Positions 37,495-46,996 of a stretch of DNA of 64,000 nt are shown here, piece after piece. The stretch comes from Catenuloplanes atrovinosus. GTDB lineage: Bacteria > Actinomycetota > Actinomycetes > Mycobacteriales > Micromonosporaceae. Under the pieces are notes generated by a model, which was not told the DNA's origin, did no database searches, and saw nothing but the letters and a program-made list of their open reading frames with translations. The number at the start of each line of letters is the position of its first letter. Within the stretch, counting starts at the first letter, position 1. The stretch covers positions 4,822,001 through 4,886,000 of the forward strand of contig NZ_JAVDYB010000001.1 of NCBI RefSeq assembly GCF_031458235.1, in the 5' to 3' direction. The translations under genes and the position numbers were made by a program.

Positions 37495-37509
37495 TGGGAA
37501 TGGTTTTCA
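37495..37509. promoter_or_regulatory. Possible Zur-type operator upstream of the anchored-repeat operon
   Basis: TGGGAATGGTTTTCA agrees at 12 of 15 positions with TGAAAATGATTTTCA, the form I recall for actinobacterial Zur boxes. It lies about 30 bases before the first anchored-repeat gene, where a repressor would block the promoter. It is less symmetric than the site at 41604. Confidence 0.5.
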
Positions 37510-37537: not shown

Positions 37538-38968
37538 ATGAATGCTCTGCGACGGCGGGCGACAGCCGGCGCGGTCGTGGCGGGACTGCTGGCCGGTCTG
37601 GTCGCGGCCGGGCCGGCACGCGCCGCCGGCCCCGTGGTGCTCGCTCAGGGCCATACCGACGCGATCGACGTCCACTACGCGGACGGGCGGCTGGAGCTGC
37701 GCGTCAACGACGACACCGTCAGCCCGCCGGTCCCGCGCGCGGTCGGCGACGTGACATTCCAGGTGCTGCCGGGCGCCCGCACCGAGGTGCCGGACCTTCC
37801 GGCCTTCGCGTTCCTCGGCGCGCCGGGCACGCCGATCTGGATGCTGCCCCAGGTCCAGGACCCGGCGCTGCTCTGGCCGGGCTGGAACACCACCGCGCTC
37901 GCGCCCGGCACGTTCCGCGGCGACGGCGTGCGGCTCAGCCTGGTCGGCGTGGACGGCCCGGGCGCGGTCACGGTCTTCGACACCAGTTCGCTCGGCGAGC
38001 CGAACATCCGCTTCCGCAGCACGGACGGGCTGCCGGACTCCATCGACGTGCCGGTGCACACGCACGCGCACGCGAGCTGGGTGTTCGGCGCGACCGGCCG
38101 CTACACGCTCACGTTCCAGGTGGACGCCACGCTCGCGGACGGCACCGCGCTGTCCACCGGGCCGGTGCCGTACCGGTTCGTGGTCGGCGACGCGGCCGAG
38201 GAACCGGTGTCGCTGTCCATCTCCGGCCTGGCCGCCTCCTACCGGCCGGGCGAGACCGTCACGCTGCAGGCGGTGCAGACGCCGCGCGGGCCGTCCACCG
38301 GCTATCGGTGGTCCAGCCGCCCGGCCGGCGCGGACGCGTTCACCGAGATCGCCGGCGAGACCGGCGCGGCCTACCGCTTCACCGCGACCGAGGCGCTGGA
38401 CCGGACCGAATACCGGGTCGGACTCGCGGACGGCACGTCGAGCCCGCCGGTCACGCTGCGCGTGACCTCGGCACCGGCACCGGAGGGTACGTCCAAGAGC
38501 GTCACCGCGTCGATCGATCCGTCGGCCGGCGCACTCGTGATCAGCGTGCTGCCCGAGGACCGGACCGTCACGCTCCCGCCCGCCGCCCTCTCCCCCGGCG
38601 GCGACGCCTGGGAGACCGGCGGCGCGCTGCGCCCGGTCACGGTCACCGACACCCGCACCGGCACGCCCGGCTGGACCGTCTCCGGCCAGGTCTCCGGCGG
38701 CTTCCGCGCCACCACCGGCGCCTCGTTCGGCGCCGAGCACCTGGGCTGGACGCCCGCGGTCGTGTCCCAGGGCGCCGGGCAGGGCGTGGTGGCCGGGCCG
38801 GTCGCGACGCCGGGCGGCTCCGGGCTCGGCACCGGCGCGCCGCTGGCCACCGCGCCGGCCGGTCGGGGCCGCGGCACCGCGCGGCTCGACGCCCAACTGC
38901 GGCTGCGCGTCCCGACCGAGACCGCGGCCGGCACCTACACCGGCACGCTCACGCTCACCGTCATCTGA
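37538..38968 (+). CDS. Secreted choice-of-anchor M protein, first gene of the anchored-repeat locus
   Basis: This 476-residue protein has a Sec signal (MNALRRRATAGAVVAGLLAGLVAAGPARAA, cut near 30). The surface-anchored repeat domain follows (about 35-215): GHTDAIDVHY, FAFLGAPGTPIWMLPQ, LLWPGWNTTAL, and HTHAHASWVFG with a Tyr-Leu strand. An Ig-like segment comes next (about 217-310: YRPGETVTLQAVQ...YRWSSRP), and the C-terminal domain (about 315-476) ends with GTYTGTLTLTVI. There is no sortase signal or C-terminal helix, so it is probably released or held by another protein. It matches the family next to 'anchored repeat' ABC transporters. Confidence 0.85.
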   Translation: MNALRRRATAGAVVAGLLAGLVAAGPARAAGPVVLAQGHTDAIDVHYADGRLELRVNDDTVSPPVPRAVGDVTFQVLPGARTEVPDLPAFAFLGAPGTPIWMLPQVQDPALLWPGWNTTALAPGTFRGDGVRLSLVGVDGPGAVTVFDTSSLGEPNIRFRSTDGLPDSIDVPVHTHAHASWVFGATGRYTLTFQVDATLADGTALSTGPVPYRFVVGDAAEEPVSLSISGLAASYRPGETVTLQAVQTPRGPSTGYRWSSRPAGADAFTEIAGETGAAYRFTATEALDRTEYRVGLADGTSSPPVTLRVTSAPAPEGTSKSVTASIDPSAGALVISVLPEDRTVTLPPAALSPGGDAWETGGALRPVTVTDTRTGTPGWTVSGQVSGGFRATTGASFGAEHLGWTPAVVSQGAGQGVVAGPVATPGGSGLGTGAPLATAPAGRGRGTARLDAQLRLRVPTETAAGTYTGTLTLTVI

Positions 38969-39045: not shown

Positions 39046-40068
39046 ATGCACAGGCTCGTCGGCCTGCTGATCACGCCGCTGCTGGCCACGGCTCCCGTGC
39101 CGGCGCCCCCGGCGCCCTCGCCCTCCCCGATCACCTGGTCCGTGGCGCCGTCCGGGCCGGCCGGACCGGACGGGCGGACCGCGCTGGACTACAAGCTGGA
39201 CCCGGGCGCCACGCTCACCGACCACGTGGTGGTCACCAACCACTCGCGGCGGACGCTCACGCTGCGCGTCTACGCCACCGACGCGTTCACCACGCCGGAG
39301 GGCGGCTTCGACCTGCTGCCCGCTGACCGCGCGCCGGCCGGCGCCGGCGCCTGGCTGACCCCGGAGCGGGAGACGGTCGTGCTGCCGTCGGCCTCGCGCG
39401 TGGTGGTGCCGGTGACGGTCGCGGTGCCGGCGAACGCGACGCCCGGTGACCACGTCGGCGGCGTCGTGGCGTCGCTGACCGGGTCCGCCACCGGGCCGGA
39501 CGGGTCCGCGGTCGCCGTGGACCACCGGGTCGGCACGCGCGTGCACCTGCGGGTGACCGGCGCGCTGCGGCCCGAGTTGAGTCTGCGCGACGCGCGGGTC
39601 GAGCGGCACGTGCCGTGGAACCCGCTGCGCCTGCCCACGCTGACCGCCACGGTCACGGTCGCGAACACCGGCAACGTGCGGCTGGCGGGCGCGGCCTCGG
39701 TGCGTACCCCCGGATCGGTCTTCGCCGGCCCGGGCCTGCCGCAGGTGCTGCCGGGCGGCGAGGTCCGCGCGACCGTGCGCACCGGCGGCGTGTGGCCGCT
39801 GTTCCGGGTGCCGGTGGAGATCGCGGTGGCGCCCGTGGCGGTGGACGGGCAGCCGCTCGATCCACGGCCGGCACCGGCGGTCGTGCGTACCGCGGTCTGG
39901 CTGGTGCCCTGGTCCCAACTGGCCGTGCTCGGCGCGCTGCTGCTGCTGACCACCGCCGCGCTGCTGGCCCGGCGCCGGCGGCGACGGCGGCTGGCCGCCG
40001 CGCTCGCGGCGGCCGAACGGCGCGGCCGTGACCTCGCCCTCTCATCCCCGAAGGAGTCGAATCCGTGA
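39046..40068 (+). CDS. DUF916-like membrane-anchored surface protein
   Basis: This 340-residue protein has a signal peptide (LVGLLITPLLATAPVPAP), two beta-sandwich domains and one C-terminal helix (about 288-312: LVPWSQLAVLGALLLLTTAALLA) followed by an Arg-rich cytoplasmic tail. The pattern LDPGATLTDHVVVTNHSRRTLTLRVYATDA, then PATPGDHVGGVVASL resembles DUF916/WxL-interacting proteins of Gram-positive surfaces, which bind peptidoglycan-associated proteins. It has no anchored-repeat domain. It overlaps the next gene by four bases, so it belongs to the operon. Confidence 0.75.
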   Translation: MHRLVGLLITPLLATAPVPAPPAPSPSPITWSVAPSGPAGPDGRTALDYKLDPGATLTDHVVVTNHSRRTLTLRVYATDAFTTPEGGFDLLPADRAPAGAGAWLTPERETVVLPSASRVVVPVTVAVPANATPGDHVGGVVASLTGSATGPDGSAVAVDHRVGTRVHLRVTGALRPELSLRDARVERHVPWNPLRLPTLTATVTVANTGNVRLAGAASVRTPGSVFAGPGLPQVLPGGEVRATVRTGGVWPLFRVPVEIAVAPVAVDGQPLDPRPAPAVVRTAVWLVPWSQLAVLGALLLLTTAALLARRRRRRRLAAALAAAERRGRDLALSSPKESNP

Positions 40069-41600
40069 GAGCTCTCCGGGTGGCCGCCGCGACGGCCGCC
40101 GCCCTGACCACGCTGGTGACGACCGCCGCGCCCGGACTGGCCGCGCCGCCCGCCGTCCCGGCGGACGGCGCCGATCTGATCGCCGTCACCGACGACGGCG
40201 GTGGCGGGCTGTCCCTGCGGTTCCGCGACGCGGCCGGGACGGTGCGCGATCCCGCGGGCCTGCGGCTCGGGCCGGACGGCGGGCTGGCCACGACCGTGCC
40301 GGACGATCCGGCGTACGCGTTCCTCGGCGCGCCCGGCCGCGCGGTCTGGTCGCTGTCCGCGGGCGGCTCGCGGTTCCCCGCGATCGACACCACGGGGGCA
40401 CCGGGCCCGCTCTCGCTCCGACTGGACAGTGTGGACGGTCCGGGCGGTTTCGCGGCCTACACGGTGTCGGGGTGGGGGCGGCCGGCCGTGCTGGTGGACA
40501 GCGACGGCCCGGCGACCGCCGCGCTGCCCGCGGGCGCGCGGCTGACGAACGTGGCGTGGACGTTCGACACGCCCGGCGTCTACCGGCTCGGCTTCACGGT
40601 CTCCGGCGAGCCCGCGGCGGGTTCGGCCTCGGCGGTCTACACGGTGGAGGTTCCGGAGATCGTCCCGGCGGAGCCCGGCACCGCGACTGCGGCGCCGGGT
40701 GGGCAGGTCCGGGCACAGGTGCTGCCACCGGTCCAGCCGCAGGTGCGGGTGCAGCCGCGGGCCGCACCGCAGGCGCCGGCACAGGCGCCGGCCGCGCAGG
40801 CCCGGACCGCCGCCACGCCCGCCGTCACGACCGCCGCGCCCACCGCCGGCCGGGTGATCAGCGACGGGCACGTGGACATGGGGCCCACGCTGGAGAACGG
40901 CGCCTGGCGGATCAGGCTCAAGGACGACGCCGCGAACCCGCCCGCCTGGCTGGAGCTCTCCGACGTGGTGCTCAGGGTGACCGACAAAGCGAAAATCCCG
41001 GTGCCGGCCGGCACCGGCTACGCGTTCCTCGGCCGCGAGGGCGCGCAGGTCCACCTGCTGCCGCAGACCCAGCAGGCCGGCATCGTCTGGCCCGGATGGA
41101 ACACCCAGCACTCCACCGTCACGTCCGGCGTGACCGGCGACGTGACGTGGACGCTGAAGGGCGTCGAGGGTCCCGGCACGTTCGCACTGTTCCTGACCGG
41201 CTCGTTCGGCACGCCGCAGGTGCTGTTCGACTCCGCGAAGCCGATGCCGCAGAAGCTCGCCGTCCCGCTCAACACGCACGCGCACGGCAACTGGGCGTTC
41301 ACCGCGCCCGGGCTCTACCGGCTCGCCGTGGAGATGTCCGCGACCACGAAGGCCGGCGCCGCGGTCTCGGACACCCGCACGCTGACCATCGCGGTCGGCG
41401 ACGCCACCGACCCGGGCGCCGGGAACACCGGCGGCGGCGGCACGAGCGCACCCGCGCCGAGCGGCGGCGGCCTGCCGCTCACCGGCGCGAACGTGCTGCT
41501 CATCGCGGCCGTCGGCGCGATCCTGGTGGTGGCCGGCGCCGGTGCGGTCCTGATCGGACGCCGCCGGACCGTGACCCAGGACACGCTTCCCCGCAGTTAA
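40065..41600 (+). CDS. Sortase-anchored protein with two choice-of-anchor M domains
   Basis: This 511-residue protein has a signal peptide (ending PGLAAPP), a degenerate first domain (about 30-215: VPDDPAYAFLGAPGRAVWSL but no HTHANW), a Pro/Gln/Ala linker (about 216-262) and a full second domain (about 263-455: GHVDMGPTLENGAWRIRLKDD, YAFLGREGAQVHLLPQTQ, HAHGNWAFTAPGLYRL). It ends with LPLTG at residue 470, a hydrophobic helix and RRR, a complete sortase signal. The first copy has lost the His-rich strand seen in the others. GTG start overlaps the preceding stop. It resembles the 'ABC transporter-associated repeat' cell-wall family. Confidence 0.88.
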   Translation: MRALRVAAATAAALTTLVTTAAPGLAAPPAVPADGADLIAVTDDGGGGLSLRFRDAAGTVRDPAGLRLGPDGGLATTVPDDPAYAFLGAPGRAVWSLSAGGSRFPAIDTTGAPGPLSLRLDSVDGPGGFAAYTVSGWGRPAVLVDSDGPATAALPAGARLTNVAWTFDTPGVYRLGFTVSGEPAAGSASAVYTVEVPEIVPAEPGTATAAPGGQVRAQVLPPVQPQVRVQPRAAPQAPAQAPAAQARTAATPAVTTAAPTAGRVISDGHVDMGPTLENGAWRIRLKDDAANPPAWLELSDVVLRVTDKAKIPVPAGTGYAFLGREGAQVHLLPQTQQAGIVWPGWNTQHSTVTSGVTGDVTWTLKGVEGPGTFALFLTGSFGTPQVLFDSAKPMPQKLAVPLNTHAHGNWAFTAPGLYRLAVEMSATTKAGAAVSDTRTLTIAVGDATDPGAGNTGGGGTSAPAPSGGGLPLTGANVLLIAAVGAILVVAGAGAVLIGRRRTVTQDTLPRS

Positions 41601-41603
41601 TGA

Positions 41604-41618
41604 AAACGATTATCGTTT
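41604..41618. promoter_or_regulatory. Perfect 7-1-7 Fur-family palindrome (Zur-like box)
   Basis: AAACGATTATCGTTT is a perfect 7-1-7 inverted repeat, the symmetry typical of Fur/Zur/Mur operators. It follows directly after the sortase-anchored gene and about 50 bases before the next start. The site supports a second, metal-controlled promoter in front of the small domain proteins and the transporter. An ATG falls next to it, but translation more likely begins at 41669. Confidence 0.65.
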
Positions 41619-41668
41619 GGCCCGAGCCCGTCCATCGGGGACGGGCCACCATCCGAAGGAGACAGTCC

Positions 41669-42319
41669 GTGCGACACTCCCTCCGCCTGCTGGCCGGGAC
41701 CGGCGCGGTCGTGGCCGCGCTGGCCGCGACCGCGGGCCCGGCGCAGGCGTCCCCCGCGCCGGCCGTGCTGAGCACCGGCCACGTCGACGCGATCGACGTG
41801 GCGTTCGAGGACGGCGCGCTCGAGCTCGCGATCCACGACGGGACCACCGACACCGAGTTCGCGCCCGCCGACGCCGTGCTGCTGGTCAAGCCCGCGGCGA
41901 AGACCGCGGTGCCGGACGACCCGGCCTACGCGTTCCTCGGCCCGGCCGGCGCGCCGGTCTGGGTGCTCCCCCAGGTGCAGAACCCCGACCTGCTGTACGC
42001 GGGCCTCTCCGCCGCGGAGGTGGAGCCGGGCGTCCTCGCGGCCGACACCGTGCGGATCAACCTGCTCGCCGTCCGCGGCCCGGGCGACATCGCCGTCTTC
42101 ACGCAGGACGCGGTCGGCACCCCGGCCGTGCTCGCGGACGACACCGACGGCCTGCCGGACACGCTGACCCTCCAGGCCGGGCAGCACGAGCACGCCAACT
42201 GGGCGTTCGACCGCGCGGGCACGTACCGGCTGACCGTCACCGCCTCCGCCGAACTGGCCGCGACCGGCGAGACCGTCACGTCCGACCCGGCCGTCTTCAC
42301 GTTCACGGTGCGGCGATGA
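41669..42319 (+). CDS. Secreted single-domain choice-of-anchor M protein
   Basis: This 216-residue protein consists of a signal peptide (LLAGTGAVVAALAATAGPAQAS, cut near 28) and one anchored-repeat domain: GHVDAIDVAFEDGALELAIHD, AKTAVPDDPAYAFLGPAGAPVWVLPQVQ, and HEHANWAFDRAGTYRLTV. It has no anchor. A GTG start with AAGGAGA upstream was chosen over the ATG at 41601, which lies inside the palindromic operator. The stop overlaps the next ATG. Confidence 0.86.
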   Translation: MRHSLRLLAGTGAVVAALAATAGPAQASPAPAVLSTGHVDAIDVAFEDGALELAIHDGTTDTEFAPADAVLLVKPAAKTAVPDDPAYAFLGPAGAPVWVLPQVQNPDLLYAGLSAAEVEPGVLAADTVRINLLAVRGPGDIAVFTQDAVGTPAVLADDTDGLPDTLTLQAGQHEHANWAFDRAGTYRLTVTASAELAATGETVTSDPAVFTFTVRR

Positions 42320-42933
42320 GCGGCCGGCTGCTCGCCGCCGCGCTGACCGCGGCCGTCGCCGGCACGCTGCTGGCCTCGCCGGCCCAGGCCGCGCCGGTCA
42401 CGCTCACCGCCGGGCACGTCGACGTGCTCGACGTCGACTACGCCGGCGGCGCGCTCACGCTGGATCTGCGGGACGGCACCGGAAGCACGCCGGTCGACCG
42501 GGCACCGGCCGAGGTGACGCTCGCGGTGCCGGCCGCCGCGAAGACCACGGTCCCGAGCGGGTCCGCGTGGTCGTTCCTCGGCACGCCGGGCAGCACGGTC
42601 TGGGTGCTGCCGCAGTCGCAGAACCCGAGCCTGCTCTTCGCGGGCTGGGACACCACCGGCGCCACCGGCGTCTCGTCGCTGACGTTCCGGCTCACCGGCG
42701 TCAGCGGGCCGGGCCGGTTCAGCGTCTACACGACCGGCTCGTTCGGCACCCCGGCGAAGCTGTTCGACTCCGGTGACGGGCTGCCGGACAGCCTGGCCGT
42801 GGCGGCCGGCACGCACGCGCACGCGAACTGGGCGTTCGGCGCGGCCGGCACCTACGCCGTGACGTTCGAGGTGACCGGCGCCGGCGTGCCCGGCACCGCG
42901 ACCGCCACCTACACGTTCGCGGTCTCGCACTGA
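42316..42933 (+). CDS. Second secreted single-domain choice-of-anchor M protein
   Basis: This 205-residue protein has a signal peptide (MSGRLLAAALTAAVAGTLLASPAQAA) plus one domain: GHVDVLDVDYAGGALTLDLRD, WSFLGTPGSTVWVLPQSQ, LLFAGWDT, TTGSFGTPAKLFDS and THAHANWAFGAAGTYAVTF. It is the shortest clean example here and defines the domain order (first half GHVDV...LPQ, second half GSFGTP...HAHANW). It ends at a strong hairpin, so the transporter genes after it may depend on read-through. Confidence 0.86.
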   Translation: MSGRLLAAALTAAVAGTLLASPAQAAPVTLTAGHVDVLDVDYAGGALTLDLRDGTGSTPVDRAPAEVTLAVPAAAKTTVPSGSAWSFLGTPGSTVWVLPQSQNPSLLFAGWDTTGATGVSSLTFRLTGVSGPGRFSVYTTGSFGTPAKLFDSGDGLPDSLAVAAGTHAHANWAFGAAGTYAVTFEVTGAGVPGTATATYTFAVSH

Positions 42934-42937
42934 CCGG

Positions 42938-42976
42938 GTCGCGGCCCGCTCCACCGGAACTGGAGCGGGCCGCGAC
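42938..42976 (+). terminator. Strong hairpin before the binding-protein gene
   Basis: Perfect 16-bp arms (42938-42953 and 42961-42976) with a 7-base loop, between the domain protein and the transporter genes. It could terminate most transcripts coming from the Zur-like promoter. Confidence 0.65.
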
Positions 42977-42999: not shown

Positions 43000-44532
43000 A
43001 TGAGAACGACGATCGCGGCCGTCGCGGCGCTCGCGGCGGGCGCGCTGAGCGCGTGCGCGGCGCCGCCCGCGTTCACCGGCGACGAGGACCGGGTGCAGGT
43101 GGTCACCACCACCGGCATCCTCGCGGACCTGGTCCGCAACGTCGGCGGCGACCGCGTGCTGGTCGACTCGCTGGTGCCGGACGACGCGGACCCGCACGGC
43201 TACGAGCCGACGCTGCGCGACGTGCGCAACACCGTCTACGCGGACGTGGCGTTCAGCAACTACCTGATGCTCGAACCGGCCGCCGTGATCAAGGCGCTGG
43301 ACGCGAACCTGCGCGACGGCGTCCCGAACATCTCGCTGGCCGAGGGCGCCACGAAGTACGCCGCCGAGATCATCCCGCTGGTGGAGAACGTCTCGCTCGA
43401 CACGATCTGGCTGGGCCTGCGCGCCCGCGGCACGGGCGCGGAGTACGGCGTCACCCGCTCCTCGGACGTGCGGCTCACCGCCACCCGCGCGGACGGGCCC
43501 GGCCGCCTCCTCGCCTACCTGACCGGTTCGTTCGGCGCCCCCGAGATCGTCTTCGACTCCGCGGAACGGCAGGGCACGGTCGTGTTGCCCGCCGACGCGC
43601 ACACGCACATGAGCTGGGCGTTCACCGAGCCGGGCGTGTACCGGCTGACGGTGCGCGCGGACCTGGCGATCGCGGCCGACTCCGGCACCGTGCCGCTGGG
43701 CGAGAACACGTTCACGTTCGCGGTCGGCGTCGACCCGCACAGCGTGCCCGGCATGGCCGGCGCGGACGTGCTCGGCCACGGGCACGCGGACCTCACCGCG
43801 GACATCGACACCGGCGAGCTGTACCTCTACGCGGACCCGCACGAGGGCGGCGCGGCGCACCAGCACCGGTACGACCCGGCGCGCACCGTGATCGAGGTGC
43901 CGGCCAAGGCGTACCAGGAGATCCCGGGCGGCACCGCGTTCCGCTTCCTCGGCCGCGCCGGCGAGCGCGTCTACCAGCTGCCGCAGGCGGTGCTCGGCCG
44001 GCACGTGCACGGCGAGATCGACCCGCACCTGTGGCAGGACGTGGGCAACGCGATGGCGTACACCGAGCTGATCCGGGACACCCTGATCGGCGCGGACCCG
44101 GCCGGGACCGGCACCTACCGCCAGAACGCGGACCGCTACCTGCGCGAGCTGACCGCGCTCGACGCCTACCTCGCCGGGACGATCGCGTCGATCCCGGCGT
44201 CCCGGCGGTACCTGGTCACCACGCACGACGCGTTCGCCTACCTGGCCGCGGCGTACGGCATCCCGGTCGCCGGATTCGTCACGCCCAACCCGGCGACCGA
44301 ACCGAGCCTCGCGGACCGCCGCAAGCTCACCGAGACGCTGCGGACGCTGCGCATCCCGGCCGTGTTCCTGGAGCCGAACCTGCGCGCCCGCTCGTCCACG
44401 CTGACCGAGGTCGCGCGCGAACAGGGCGTGGCGGTCTGCGACATCTACGGCGACGCGTTCGACGACCGGATCACCACGTACCTGGCGATGATGCGCTTCA
44501 ACGCGGACTCGCTCCACCGCTGTCTCTCCTAG
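43000..44532 (+). CDS. Metal-binding lipoprotein of the anchored-repeat ABC transporter, with permuted domain insert
   Basis: This 510-residue lipoprotein (lipobox LSAC, Cys19) is a ZnuA/cluster-9-type binding protein: N-lobe with DPHGYEP (His66), C-lobe with HVHGEIDPHLWQ (His335, 337, 343), VTTHDAFAYLA (His409) and CDIYGDAF. Between the lobes, residues 130-335 are an insert of anchored-repeat sequence in swapped order: second-half motifs first (GSFGAPEIVFDS, HTHMSWAFTEPGVYRLTV at 175-218), then first-half motifs (LGHGHADL, FRFLGRAGERVYQLPQ at 258-329). The insert is also rich in His. It probably captures Zn or Mn outside the cell. Confidence 0.9.
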   Translation: MRTTIAAVAALAAGALSACAAPPAFTGDEDRVQVVTTTGILADLVRNVGGDRVLVDSLVPDDADPHGYEPTLRDVRNTVYADVAFSNYLMLEPAAVIKALDANLRDGVPNISLAEGATKYAAEIIPLVENVSLDTIWLGLRARGTGAEYGVTRSSDVRLTATRADGPGRLLAYLTGSFGAPEIVFDSAERQGTVVLPADAHTHMSWAFTEPGVYRLTVRADLAIAADSGTVPLGENTFTFAVGVDPHSVPGMAGADVLGHGHADLTADIDTGELYLYADPHEGGAAHQHRYDPARTVIEVPAKAYQEIPGGTAFRFLGRAGERVYQLPQAVLGRHVHGEIDPHLWQDVGNAMAYTELIRDTLIGADPAGTGTYRQNADRYLRELTALDAYLAGTIASIPASRRYLVTTHDAFAYLAAAYGIPVAGFVTPNPATEPSLADRRKLTETLRTLRIPAVFLEPNLRARSSTLTEVAREQGVAVCDIYGDAFDDRITTYLAMMRFNADSLHRCLS

Positions 44533-44543
44533 AAGGAACCGCC

Positions 44544-45428
44544 GTGTTGACACTCGTGAGCCGCGTCCTGCTGGCCGCCGCGCTGGCCGTACCGTCGCCG
44601 GACGGCCTCTCCCAGAGCCTCGACCCACGCCAGGAGCAGGCCACCGGGCCCGCCGTGCTGGAGGCCGGGCACGTCGACGTGGGACCGCGCTACCGCGACG
44701 GCGCGTGGACGGTCCAGATCCACGACGACGAGCGGGTCCCGCCGGTGTGGCGCAGCCCGGACGACGCGGTCATCCGGGTGCGCGACGCCGCGCGGCAGGC
44801 GATCCCGGACGACCCGGCGTACCGGTTCCTGGGCGAGGCGCCGGGCACGTCCGTGCACGTGCTGCCGCAGACGCAGCAGGAGGGCGTGGTGTGGCTCGGC
44901 TGGAACACCCAGGACCCGGGCGTGCTGGAGCACGCCGGGCGCGGCGTCACGATGAACCTGCGCGGCGTGCACGGGCCCGGCCGGCTGACCGTGTTCCTCC
45001 AGTCGGGCACGCTCGGCGCGCCGCAGGTGCTGTGGAGCACGGACACCGCGTACCCGCAGGCGCTCTGGGTCGACCGGAATACGCACACGCACGCGAACTG
45101 GGTGTTCGGCCGGCCCGGCGTCTACCTGGTCGCGCTGGACGTGACCGCGGAGCTGGCCGGCGGCGGCACCGCGACCGCCAGTGCCACGCTGCGCTTCGCG
45201 GTCGGCGACGCGACCGACCCCGACCAGGCCCGCGCCGCCGCGCTCACGCTGCCGCCGGCCTCGCCGTCACCGGCCGCCGCCGCGGTCGCCGGGGGCGACG
45301 CCGTGCCCGGATGGCTCGCCGTCCTGCTCGGGCTCGCCGCGGTGCTGCTGGTCGCGCTGCTGATCGGCGTGGCCGTGCGCGGCGCCGCCGTCCGCCGCCG
45401 CGCCGAACGCGAGCGGGGTGCAGCGTGA
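44544..45428 (+). CDS. Membrane-anchored choice-of-anchor M protein
   Basis: This 294-residue protein has a short signal (LTLVSRVLLAAALAVP), one domain (GHVDVGPRYRDGAWTVQIHDD, YRFLGEAPGTSVHVLPQTQQ, VVWLGWNT, HTHANWVFGRPGVYLVAL) and a C-terminal helix (about 255-278: WLAVLLGLAAVLLVALLIGVAV) with an Arg-rich tail. It has no LPxTG, so it stays in the membrane. Its domain is closest by eye to the second domain of the sortase-anchored protein. The GTG start has AGAAGGA ahead of it. The stop overlaps the ATPase start. Confidence 0.85.
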   Translation: MLTLVSRVLLAAALAVPSPDGLSQSLDPRQEQATGPAVLEAGHVDVGPRYRDGAWTVQIHDDERVPPVWRSPDDAVIRVRDAARQAIPDDPAYRFLGEAPGTSVHVLPQTQQEGVVWLGWNTQDPGVLEHAGRGVTMNLRGVHGPGRLTVFLQSGTLGAPQVLWSTDTAYPQALWVDRNTHTHANWVFGRPGVYLVALDVTAELAGGGTATASATLRFAVGDATDPDQARAAALTLPPASPSPAAAAVAGGDAVPGWLAVLLGLAAVLLVALLIGVAVRGAAVRRRAERERGAA

Positions 45429-46138
45429 GCCCGGTGCTGGAGCTGTCCGGGGTGACGGTGCGGCTGGGCGGCCGCGTCGCGCTGGAGGACGTCACCATGA
45501 GCGTCGCCGGCGGCGAGTTCGCCGCGCTGCTCGGCCCGAACGGCGCCGGCAAGACCACGCTGCTGCGCGCCGCGCTCGGCCTGCTGCCGCTGGCCGGTGG
45601 CCGGACCACGATCACCAATCCGGGGTACGTACCGCAGCGGCACGAGTTCGCCTGGGACTTCCCCGCCTCCGTGCAGGACGTGGTGCTCAGCGGCCTGGTC
45701 CGGCGGATCGGCCTGTTCCGCCGCCCGCGCGTGGCGCACTGGACCGCGGTCTGGGACGCGCTCGACCGGGTGCGGCTCGCCGACCTGCGCACCCGGCCGG
45801 TCGGCGAGCTCTCCGGCGGGCAGCGGCAGCGCGTGCTGGTCGCCCGCGCGCTGGCGCTGGACCCGGCCGTGCTGCTGCTGGACGAGCCGTTCACCGGCCT
45901 GGACATGCCCTCCCAGGAGGTGCTGACCGAGCTGTTCACCACGATCGCGCGGGAACGGGCGGTGCTGATGGCCACGCACGACCTGGCCGCCGCGGCGTAC
46001 ACCTGCGATCGGCTCATTCTCATCAACCGCACCGTGGTGGCCGCGGCTCCCCCGGGGGACTTGCGCGACCGCGAGGTGTGGATGCGCGCGTTCCAGGTCG
46101 GCGCGGAGAGTCACCTGCTCAAGGCGCTGGGGGTCTGA
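45425..46138 (+). CDS. ABC transporter ATPase of the anchored-repeat system
   Basis: This 237-residue ATPase of the Zn/Mn (ZnuC/MntB) type has Walker A GPNGAGKTT, VPQRHEFAWDFPASVQDVVLSG (Q-loop and the family's PxSVxDVV element), signature LSGGQRQR, Walker B LLLDEPFTGLD and an H-loop His in ATHDLAAA. It powers metal import. GTG overlaps the preceding gene. The stop abuts the permease start directly, so the ATPase and permease form a tight pair. Confidence 0.95.
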   Translation: MSPVLELSGVTVRLGGRVALEDVTMSVAGGEFAALLGPNGAGKTTLLRAALGLLPLAGGRTTITNPGYVPQRHEFAWDFPASVQDVVLSGLVRRIGLFRRPRVAHWTAVWDALDRVRLADLRTRPVGELSGGQRQRVLVARALALDPAVLLLDEPFTGLDMPSQEVLTELFTTIARERAVLMATHDLAAAAYTCDRLILINRTVVAAAPPGDLRDREVWMRAFQVGAESHLLKALGV

Positions 46139-46996
46139 ATGTCGCCGCTGGACTTCCTCGCCGACCTGGTCAACCCCGACCTGGCGTTCCTGCCGAAGGC
46201 GCTGGCGATCGCGGTCATGTCGGCGATCATGTGCGGCGTGGTCGGCTGCTACGTGGTGCTGCGCGGCATGGCGTTCATCGGCGACGCGGTGGCGCACGCG
46301 GTGTTCCCCGGCCTGGCCGTGGCATTCCTGTTCTCCGGCAGCCTGGTGCTCGGCGGCATCACGGCCGGCGTGCTCACCGCGCTGCTCGTCGCGCTCTTCT
46401 CGCAGAACCGGCGGGTCCGCGAGGACTCGGTCATCGGCGTCTTCTTCGTGGCCGCGTTCGCGCTCGGCATCGTGATCATCTCGCGCGCGCCCGGGTACGC
46501 CGGTTCGCTGCAACAGTTCCTGTTCGGCTCGATCACCGGCATCCCGGACCGGGACCTGCTCGTGGTCGGCGGCACCGGCCTGTTCCTGCTGCTCGCGGTC
46601 GCGCTGCTGCACAAGGAGTTCGTCGCGGTGACGCTGGACCGGGAGATGGCCCGCGCGCTCGGCCTGCGCGTGCTCCCGCTCGACCTGACGCTCTACGTGC
46701 TGGTCACGCTGGCGGTGGTGATGGCGGTGCAGACCATCGGCAACATCCTGGTGCTCGCGCTGCTGGTCACGCCCGCGGCCACGGCCCGCCTGCTCACCGA
46801 CCGGCTGGCCGCGATGATGGTGCTGGCGCCGGCGATCGGCGCCGGATCCGCGGTGGTGGGCCTCTACCTGTCCTGGTCCTGGGATCTGCCGGTGGGCGGC
46901 ACCGTCGTGCTGGTGCTGACCGCGGCCTTCCTGCTCGCCTTCCTGCTGGCGCCGCGCCACGGCGCGCTCACCCGGCTGGCCCGGGCCCGCCTCTAG
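46139..46996 (+). CDS. ABC permease of the anchored-repeat system
   Basis: This 285-residue permease of the ABC-3 (ZnuB/MntC) family has eight or more helices, with GCYVVLRGMAFIGDAVAHAVFPGLAVAFL early and TIGNILVLALLVTPAATARLLTDRL late. Its sequence from residue 30 to 65 is the usual family core. Together with the ATPase and lipoprotein it makes a complete importer. It starts immediately after the ATPase stop. A short palindrome overlaps its own stop codon (46981-47007). Confidence 0.95.
   Translation: MSPLDFLADLVNPDLAFLPKALAIAVMSAIMCGVVGCYVVLRGMAFIGDAVAHAVFPGLAVAFLFSGSLVLGGITAGVLTALLVALFSQNRRVREDSVIGVFFVAAFALGIVIISRAPGYAGSLQQFLFGSITGIPDRDLLVVGGTGLFLLLAVALLHKEFVAVTLDREMARALGLRVLPLDLTLYVLVTLAVVMAVQTIGNILVLALLVTPAATARLLTDRLAAMMVLAPAIGAGSAVVGLYLSWSWDLPVGGTVVLVLTAAFLLAFLLAPRHGALTRLARARL

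What the first reader, a model, noticed from the sequence alone, without database searches (positions are those of the whole stretch)
43000..44532. Binding lipoprotein contains the surface domain in permuted half order
In the single-domain proteins the order is GHVDV...FLG...LPQ, then GSFGTP...HAHANWAF...Y. In the lipoprotein, residues 130-335 show GSFGAP...HTHMSWAFTEPGVYRLTV first and GHGHADL...FRFLGRAGERVYQLPQ second, between the two metal-binding lobes. This looks like a circular permutation or a nested insertion. It places the domain's ends next to the metal-site residues (His335-343), so the domain may hand over or gate the metal.
Basis: seen in the sequence. Interest (0 to 1): 0.7.

Follow-up and report, generated by a model that had tools for sequence, protein, structure and literature searches.

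The report
Permuted zinc domain inside zinc-binding lipoprotein
A bacterial zinc-import lipoprotein carries, inside the loop next to its metal site, a copy of the zinc-related domain of the neighbouring cell-surface proteins with its two halves in swapped order, which suggests a built-in zinc hand-over module.

Summary
The lipoprotein (43000-44532) is an anchored-repeat ABC-transporter binding protein (TIGR03772): a ZnuA/AztC-type metal-binding fold interrupted at residues ~127-329 by one choice_anch_M domain, second half first. A doubled domain profile aligns to the insert as one continuous turn (E 3e-37); predicted secondary structure agrees at 158 of 182 mapped positions. So it is a circularly permuted domain nested in a binding protein. 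The order is C-half then N-half in 81 of 81 binding proteins scored and in 12 of 12 pairs listed in a survey made by the domain alone. The insert sits where AztC has its D-loop, needed to take zinc from the chaperone AztD (PMC7463823). HxH, HxD and the receptor ligands are invariant in 81 of 81. Likeliest role: a built-in zinc-capture and docking domain feeding the transport site; that step is untested. The reversed HxD/HxH order is already in print for Corynebacterium diphtheriae ZnuA (PMC12445094); my searches listed no paper calling it a permutation. No coordinates were available, so no 3D superposition was done.

The parts
43000..44532 (+). Lipoprotein substrate-binding protein, 510 aa, TIGR03772 anch_rpt_subst
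   Evidence: 742.8 bits vs cut-off 350.45, model 1-486/486; Cys19 in 81 of 81
43000..43377 (+). Signal/lipobox and N-lobe of the cluster A-I metal-binding fold (residues 1-126); ligand His66 at 43195-43197
   Evidence: phmmer to MntA/AztC/PsaA; His66 81 of 81; AF2 confidence low over residues ~67-126, block means 45-59
43390..43728 (+). C-half of the choice_anch_M domain (residues ~131-243), placed first; HxH = His201/His203 at 43600-43608
   Evidence: NF038134 71-184; hhalign; both His 81 of 81
43729..43767 (+). Linker joining the domain's normal C-terminus to its normal N-terminus (residues 244-256)
   Evidence: between the two halves in hhalign, mostly unaligned
43768..43986 (+). N-half of the choice_anch_M domain (residues ~257-329), placed second; HxD = His262/Asp264 at 43783-43791
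   Evidence: hhalign; genome hit 2-73; 81 of 81
43987..44529 (+). Conserved junction AVLGRHVHGEIDPHLW and C-lobe (residues 330-510); ligands His343 (44026-44028), His409 (44224-44226), Asp485 (44452-44454)
44553..45428 (+). Membrane-anchored choice_anch_M protein in normal order (position of ZnuE in C. diphtheriae)
   Evidence: NF038134 1-184, 197.5 bits; a normal-order domain gene starts within 400 nt after the binding protein in 80 of 81 loci
45401..46138 (+). ABC ATPase TIGR03771 (exact start not settled)
   Evidence: 303.6 bits vs 268.8
46139..46996 (+). ABC permease TIGR03770
   Evidence: 443.8 bits vs 296.8
42316..42933 (+). Single-domain secreted protein, normal order (reference for the permutation)
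   Evidence: NF038134 2-184, 176.3 bits; AF2 pLDDT 97.9
41696..42319 (+). Second single-domain secreted protein, normal order (stretch read; true start upstream, not settled)
   Evidence: 178 bits
40065..41600 (+). Two-domain LPXTG-type wall protein TIGR03773
   Evidence: 315.1 bits vs 190.3; LPXTG anchor 17.2 vs 15.9 bits
37538..38968 (+). Secreted protein with one normal-order domain
   Evidence: 181.1 bits
37495..37509 (+). Zur-like 7-1-7 palindrome, 2 mismatches to TGAAAA-N3-TTTTCA, upstream of 37538
   Evidence: consensus in PMC2823685
41601..41615 (+). Zur-like palindrome, 2 mismatches, at the start of the single-domain genes

Best explanation
The protein is the lipoprotein receptor of a zinc ABC importer whose metal-capture loop has been replaced by a circularly permuted copy of the HxD/HxH domain that its wall and membrane partner proteins carry in normal order. 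Shown here: one domain, cut between ...LPQ and the following strand, halves swapped, old ends joined by a ~13-residue linker (about 0.97). Shown by alignment: it sits in the loop before DPHxW, the place of the AztC D-loop (about 0.9). Inferred: the domain binds zinc with HxH plus HxD, docks on or receives zinc from the like domains of the partner proteins, and passes it to the His66/His343/His409/Asp485 site, whose His343 is 14 residues away in sequence (about 0.45). Permutation would fit a domain whose normal ends do not suit that loop; this too is inference.
For: One continuous turn on a doubled profile: template 72-255 of 360, Prob 99.9, E 3e-37. Secondary-structure agreement 158/182 = 87% in register against a mean of 43% over 179 circular shifts and 73% for the best other shift, which is one residue off (models). 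Order CN in 81 of 81 binding proteins scored, NC in the other domain genes, and no frame outside this family that reads CN alone. Leaving out residues 127-329 makes the rest align to MntA, AztC and PsaA in one piece, the join falling at the AztC stretch that the loop-deletion AztC (5kzj) lacks; PMC7463823 (passages) states that the D-loop and each of its three His are essential for zinc transfer from AztD. Domain ligands and transport ligands invariant 81 of 81. HxD and HxH are kept or lost together: of 356 domains scored, 327 keep both, 29 lack both, 0 have one, as for one site. Zinc-type ligand set (His409 where MntA and PsaA have Glu and AztC has His). Zur-like sites: 68 in 80 loci against 1.1 expected. 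In C. diphtheriae ZnuE, ZnuF and ZnuG shift in melting with zinc, and the motif His residues of ZnuE and ZnuG matter in growth assays (PMC12445094).
Against: No metal binding or transfer by the insert is shown anywhere I looked. In C. diphtheriae ZnuE with the three motif His changed still responds to zinc, and the authors could not prove that the motif binds it; deleting znuA has only a weak effect. In AdcA the attached second zinc domain is not needed for import (PMC7858048). The AF2 model of the lipoprotein (five models, mean pLDDT 73-81) is weak in the N-lobe (residues ~67-126, block means 45-59) and at the C-side junction (residues ~327-346, 52-57), and no coordinates or PAE were available, so the distance between the two sites is unknown. 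Which free domain the insert came from is unresolved.
Confidence: 0.5

Rival explanations
1. Docking-only module: the permuted domain is an adaptor that binds like domains of the wall/membrane proteins (44553-45428 and others) and brings them to the receptor, but does not itself carry zinc in transit.
For: A normal-order domain gene directly follows in 80 of 81 loci. 32 positions are at least 96% fixed in the 77 receptors of A2 but shared by under 70% of 110 free domains (or without counterpart); 16 of the 32 lie in residues 125-155 or 326-327, at the junctions, as expected of contact surfaces.
Against: HxH and HxD are invariant in 81 of 81 receptors, whereas 27 of 35 first tandem domains have lost both.
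Confidence: 0.22
2. Lid or sensor: the domain closes over or gates the transport site, or senses zinc, without handing zinc over.
For: Insert lies in the loop beside the metal site; junction residues 125-141 and 326-345 hold many nearly invariant positions, suggesting fixed geometry.
Against: No geometric evidence; a 200-residue domain with its own ligand set is more than a lid needs.
Confidence: 0.18
3. Fixed accident: a fragment of a tandem domain protein running from mid-domain 1 to mid-domain 2 landed in the loop, folded, and was kept without any specific role for the permutation.
For: Such a fragment has exactly the order C-linker-N; BLASTP aligns lipoprotein 165-329 collinearly across the domain-1/domain-2 boundary of the neighbour 40065-41600 (residues 124-334, 28% identity, E 8e-11). 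Each half of the insert forms one clade (FastTree, 74 and 79 receptor leaves, 0.996 and 1.0; careful trees with 12 of 76 receptors, 100/98 and 100/100).
Against: Half-domain trees do not show the expected parents: FastTree puts the N-half near first domains (0.76) and the C-half near second domains and the downstream protein (0.80), the reverse of the simple fragment; grouping with the downstream protein is not rejected for either half (p-AU 0.134 and 0.40). Strong conservation over many genera argues for function of the domain, though not of the permutation.
Confidence: 0.1

Closest known systems
TIGR03772 anchored repeat ABC transporter substrate-binding protein, including C. diphtheriae ZnuA/TroA (dip0438)
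   Same: Member: full-length model match; same gene set; the same reversed HxD/HxH order is reported for C. diphtheriae ZnuA (PMC12445094 section 5)
   Different: The report gives motif order and 45 residues between motifs (58 in 47 of 81 here, range 53-61), not a whole-domain permutation, breakpoint or loop position
AztC with its separate chaperone AztD
   Same: Same receptor fold (5kzj Z 24.1), same zinc-type ligands in the alignment, insert in the place of the D-loop that takes zinc from the chaperone
   Different: AztD is a separate beta-propeller; here the extra domain is a beta-rich domain within the receptor itself; NF040870 cut-off not reached
AdcA (ZnuA-like plus ZinT-like domain)
   Same: Zinc receptor lipoprotein with a second zinc-binding domain in one chain (PMC7858048 passages)
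   Different: Second domain is C-terminal, of another family, and dispensable for import
ZnuE, ZnuF, ZnuG, CmrA (HxD/HxH surface proteins of C. diphtheriae)
   Same: Same motif set, zinc-linked; taken here as the choice_anch_M family, not tested on their sequences
   Different: HxD before HxH, wall or membrane bound, no receptor fold reported

Membership tests
TIGR03772 anch_rpt_subst | Whole-protein score over curated cut-off, full-length match | tested here: met
   742.8 vs 350.45 bits, 1-486/486
TIGR03772 anch_rpt_subst | Set beside TIGR03770 permease, TIGR03771 ATPase and TIGR03773-type surface protein | tested here: met
   443.8, 303.6 and 315.1 bits, each over its cut-off
Cluster A-I metal-binding lipoproteins (PF01297) | Two-lobed fold, four metal ligands, lipobox | tested here: met
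   PF01297 222.6 vs 29 bits; Z 24.6 to MntC 3ujp, rmsd 3.0, 242 aligned; His66/343/409, Asp485 and Cys19 81 of 81
choice_anch_M (NF038134) | Score over cut-off | tested here: met
   105.6 vs 55 bits
choice_anch_M (NF038134) | Model positions in order 1-184 | tested here: not met
   70/71-184 precedes 2-73: a permuted relative of the domain
Circular permutant of choice_anch_M | One continuous turn of the domain | tested here: met
   doubled profile 72-255, E 3e-37
Circular permutant of choice_anch_M | 3D superposition with permuted connectivity | not testable with these tools
   model coordinates not released; secondary-structure register 158/182 is the substitute
AztC (NF040870) | Score over cut-off | tested here: not met
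   189.5 vs 350 bits
AdcA (NF033605) | Score over cut-off | tested here: not met
   74.8 vs 700 bits
Zinc importer | Zinc binding and uptake | not testable with these tools
   inferred from ligand set, Zur-like sites and C. diphtheriae work

The most novel reading that the evidence does not exclude
A zinc relay built from one repeated domain: wall-anchored, secreted and membrane-bound copies in normal order capture zinc and pass it, like domain to like domain, to a permuted copy built into the receptor, whose rewired ends place its metal site against the transport site. The permutation itself would then be the adaptation that turns a surface collector into an intramolecular hand-over arm.
Probability: 0.3. 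Interest if true: 0.75.

Novelty: new variant of a known kind. Interest (0 to 1): 0.52.

Why it matters
How zinc crosses the thick wall of these bacteria to a membrane receptor is open. A receptor that carries, in its capture loop, the same domain as its surface partners makes a like-to-like relay testable by simple mutants. It is also a natural, widely kept case of a circularly permuted domain inserted in a binding protein, an arrangement that protein engineers make by hand (for example a permuted beta-lactamase in maltose-binding protein, PMC3375305, abstract start seen in the listing).

Tried and rejected
Chance or two unrelated half-matches: rejected by one continuous alignment on the doubled profile.

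Normal-order insertion: none seen among the 81 receptors scored. The 27 frames with other orders (CNC, CCNC, NNCCNC, C alone and so on) are listed; none is CN alone. They are mostly long multi-copy frames with weak or missing N-half hits or frames with a single half, and I did not resolve each.

Tracing the donor domain: half-domain trees did not resolve it. FastTree neighbours of the two halves differ (0.76 and 0.80 support); holding receptors together with the downstream protein is not rejected for either half.

Known fold of the free domain: no sequence relative in the PDB (best E 0.071); Foldseek best E 3e-3 with low TM-score; VIA-align best Z 7.0, which its note says may be only a common arrangement. 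No claim of a new fold.

A Zur pattern with a four-base spacer matched only outside the cluster; with three bases it gave five window matches against 0.30 expected, two of them (the two with 2 mismatches) in the cluster and three (3 mismatches) elsewhere. The ZepA paper PMC10957091 (find only) has no hit for anchor, TIGR03, permut, actinobacter or HxH.

Paper searches bearing on the permutation: 15 of 924 listed; 4 of 4; 12 of 309; 1 of 1; 2 of 2; no listed title or abstract start concerns this permutation, and most listed papers were not opened. Only open-licence PMC papers are held.

Full report
WHAT IS THERE. The window holds a zinc-type ABC import cluster: surface proteins with the choice_anch_M domain (37538-38968, 40065-41600, one ending at 42319, 42316-42933), the lipoprotein (43000-44532), a membrane-anchored single-domain protein (44553-45428), ABC ATPase and permease (to 46996). 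NCBIfam names the lipoprotein TIGR03772 anch_rpt_subst over its full length (742.8 bits, cut-off 350.45) and the partners TIGR03771, TIGR03770 and TIGR03773. The whole genome (8.9 Mb, one contig) gives eight hits of the domain model, all in this cluster; two of the eight are the two halves of the lipoprotein's domain.

THE PERMUTATION. The domain model NF038134 runs 71-184 on lipoprotein residues 126-242, and its first half falls downstream. I aligned 77 lipoproteins (A2: the window and 76 of the 80 loci) and 110 normal-order domains (A3: 109 of 209 dereplicated locus domains, and the window's) and compared the insert with A3 by hhalign. With A3 as it is: two pieces, template 72-179 (E 2.2e-25) then 2-75 (E 9e-16). 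With A3 written twice: one alignment of 182 columns over template 72-255, i.e. 184 positions of a 180-residue domain, one full turn with a four-residue overlap at the LPQ motif, Prob 99.9, E 3.1e-37. With the halves exchanged in silico: one piece 2-179, E 2.2e-39. The cut is after ...LPQ(329) / before the strand at ~137-143, and the old ends are bridged by residues 244-256. 65 of 182 aligned residues are identical to the 205-residue protein.

STRUCTURE. AlphaFold2 gave the single domain pLDDT 97.9 and the mature lipoprotein 81.3 (five models 73-81); over the insert (model 111-300) the ten-residue means are 77-96 with one block of 67, but the N-lobe is poor from full-length residue ~67 to ~136 (45-66) and so is the C-side junction at ~327-346 (52-57). 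The strands and one helix follow one another in the permuted order: single E3-5...E69-73 | E82-90...E169-178; lipoprotein (model numbers, add 26) E111-117...E204-216 | E230-232...E297-301. Mapped by the sequence alignment, the state agrees at 158 of 182 positions (87%); over 179 circular shifts the mean is 43% and the best other value 73%, one residue off. The tools release no coordinates, so a real superposition and the distance between the two metal sites remain undone. The receptor part matches MntC (Z 24.6, 242 of 484 residues aligned), Listeria MntA (24.1) and AztC (24.1); from the aligned lengths the insert must be largely skipped.

HOW GENERAL. The search for related loci scanned named GTDB genomes: 417 places encode a relative and the best 80 were kept. 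Its two search peptides lie in this protein, so the set is biased to close relatives (63-80% identical over the mature protein). With half-domain profiles made from five window domains, 81 of 81 receptors (80 loci and the window) read C-half then N-half; other frames read NC (211), NCNC (48), NCNCNC (10), or other orders (27, several of them C or N alone); none reads CN alone. A survey that does not start from the receptor: of 295 genomes of the class, 23 have the domain model; 22 of these have a hit to the C-half only (starting between 30 and 77 of 184) in a frame of 512-901 aa, which I take to be the receptor (read as such only in the window's genome, G214 and G246); for 12 the N-half hit in a frame of the same length is listed and lies downstream in 12 of 12; the other 10 N-halves are not in the cut list; one genome (G484) has only two fragments. 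An earlier phylum draw found the receptor over cut-off in 3 of 396 genomes, so the family is patchy. Each half of the insert forms one clade: FastTree with 74 and 79 receptor leaves (0.996, 1.0) and careful trees with 12 of 76 receptors among 62 rows (100/98, 100/100). One origin is the simple reading.

SITE OF INSERTION. With residues 127-329 left out, the receptor aligns to solved MntA, AztC and PsaA in one stretch (E 1e-39, 6e-35, 2e-32), against two stretches before. The join falls just before DPHxW, on the AztC stretch HYHYIDGKAVFHA, which is missing from the loop-deletion AztC 5kzj. PMC7463823 (passages read) says that the D-loop (117-133 by its numbering; it names H138 as a zinc-site residue, which I take to be the DPHxW His) and each of its three His are essential for transfer of zinc from the chaperone AztD. 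So the inserted domain occupies the docking loop. Around it, IIPLVE..LDT.WLGLR and QLPQAVLGKHVHGEIDPHLW hold many invariant positions. 32 positions of residues 124-329 are at least 96% fixed in A2 but shared by under 70% of A3, or lack a counterpart; 16 of them lie in 125-155 or 326-327.

LIGANDS. Receptor ligands His66, His343, His409, Asp485 and domain residues His201, His203, His262, Asp264 are invariant in 81 of 81, as are His335 and His337. The four domain residues are also invariant in 110 of 110 rows of A3. Over 356 domains (receptors, NC and NCNC frames with both halves at least 75% covered; NCNCNC and the 27 other frames were left out), 327 have HxD and HxH, 29 have neither in full and none has only one; 27 of the 29 are first domains of tandem wall proteins, 27 of 35. 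In most of these the Asp remains (GxD). This co-loss fits one joint site split between the halves, which the permutation keeps.

ZINC LINK. TGAAAA-N3-TTTTCA with up to two mismatches occurs 68 times in the 80 loci (1.05 Mb) against 1.1 expected in local shuffles; 34 of 68 lie near a domain-gene start by my rough start estimates, in 28 of 80 loci; the other 34 do not. The window has two such, 37495-37509 and 41601-41615. PMC2823685 (passages) gives TGAAAATGATTTTCA as the Streptomyces coelicolor Zur consensus. In C. diphtheriae the corresponding gene set (dip0438-dip0445) is repressed by zinc and Zur (PMC6711530, passages; dip0445 itself changes little).

PRIOR PRINT. PMC12445094 (abstract and sections 5, 8, 12 read) reports that C. 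diphtheriae ZnuA has the HxD/HxH motif in reverse order, 45 residues apart, and that ZnuE, ZnuF and ZnuG show zinc-dependent thermal shifts; 'permut' does not occur in its main text. Thus the raw oddity is known for one protein; the whole-domain permutation, its cut point, its loop position and its generality are what this work adds. Searches bearing on this: with capped listings in 11 and 29.

HOW IT PROBABLY WORKS. Zinc caught by surface copies of the domain is passed to the receptor's built-in copy and from there to the transport site. Shown: architecture, conservation, position. Inferred: zinc binding by the insert, contact with partners, transfer. Against: the motif's zinc binding is not proven in the best-studied relatives, a znuA deletion has a weak effect, which the authors suggest other binding proteins may explain, and in AdcA the extra zinc domain is dispensable (PMC7858048 passages). 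Docking-only and lid/sensor roles remain open.

Noticed in passing
window 40065-41600, first domain (residues ~35-200): First domain of the two-domain wall protein lacks both HxD and HxH; in 27 of 35 such first domains both motifs are incomplete together, as if the domain were kept for another role.
   Followed up: partly
window 42938-42976: Perfect 16-bp inverted repeat (7-nt loop) just after the single-domain gene, leaving only 23 nt before the lipoprotein ATG: terminator or leader structure between two parts of the cluster.
   Followed up: no
window 41600-41615: The first ATG of the 41600-42319 frame overlaps the upstream stop and lies on the Zur-like palindrome; either the real start is further downstream or the operator lies inside the gene start.
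   Followed up: no
window 38636-38953 (C-terminus of the 37538-38968 protein): Weak WxL surface-domain match (16.6 bits, below the cut-off of 25), a possible other way of wall attachment.
   Followed up: no
L041/L051, L076/L110, L084/L087/L103: Some genomes hold two or three permuted receptors: Micromonospora endolithica, Conexibacter sp. CPCC 205762, Bifidobacteriaceae MAG Pcl387_bin9 (a MAG may be mixed).
   Followed up: no
L068, L085, L100, L103, L106, L107: Frames of 1539-1969 aa with six or seven C-half hits, the leading ones without an N-half hit in most: very long multi-copy wall proteins.
   Followed up: no
L073, L076, L080, L081, L083, L099, L110: Thermoleophilia (Conexibacter, Solirubrobacter; class recalled) carry receptors 65-67% identical (best segment) to the window's, close for a different class; possible gene transfer.
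   Followed up: no
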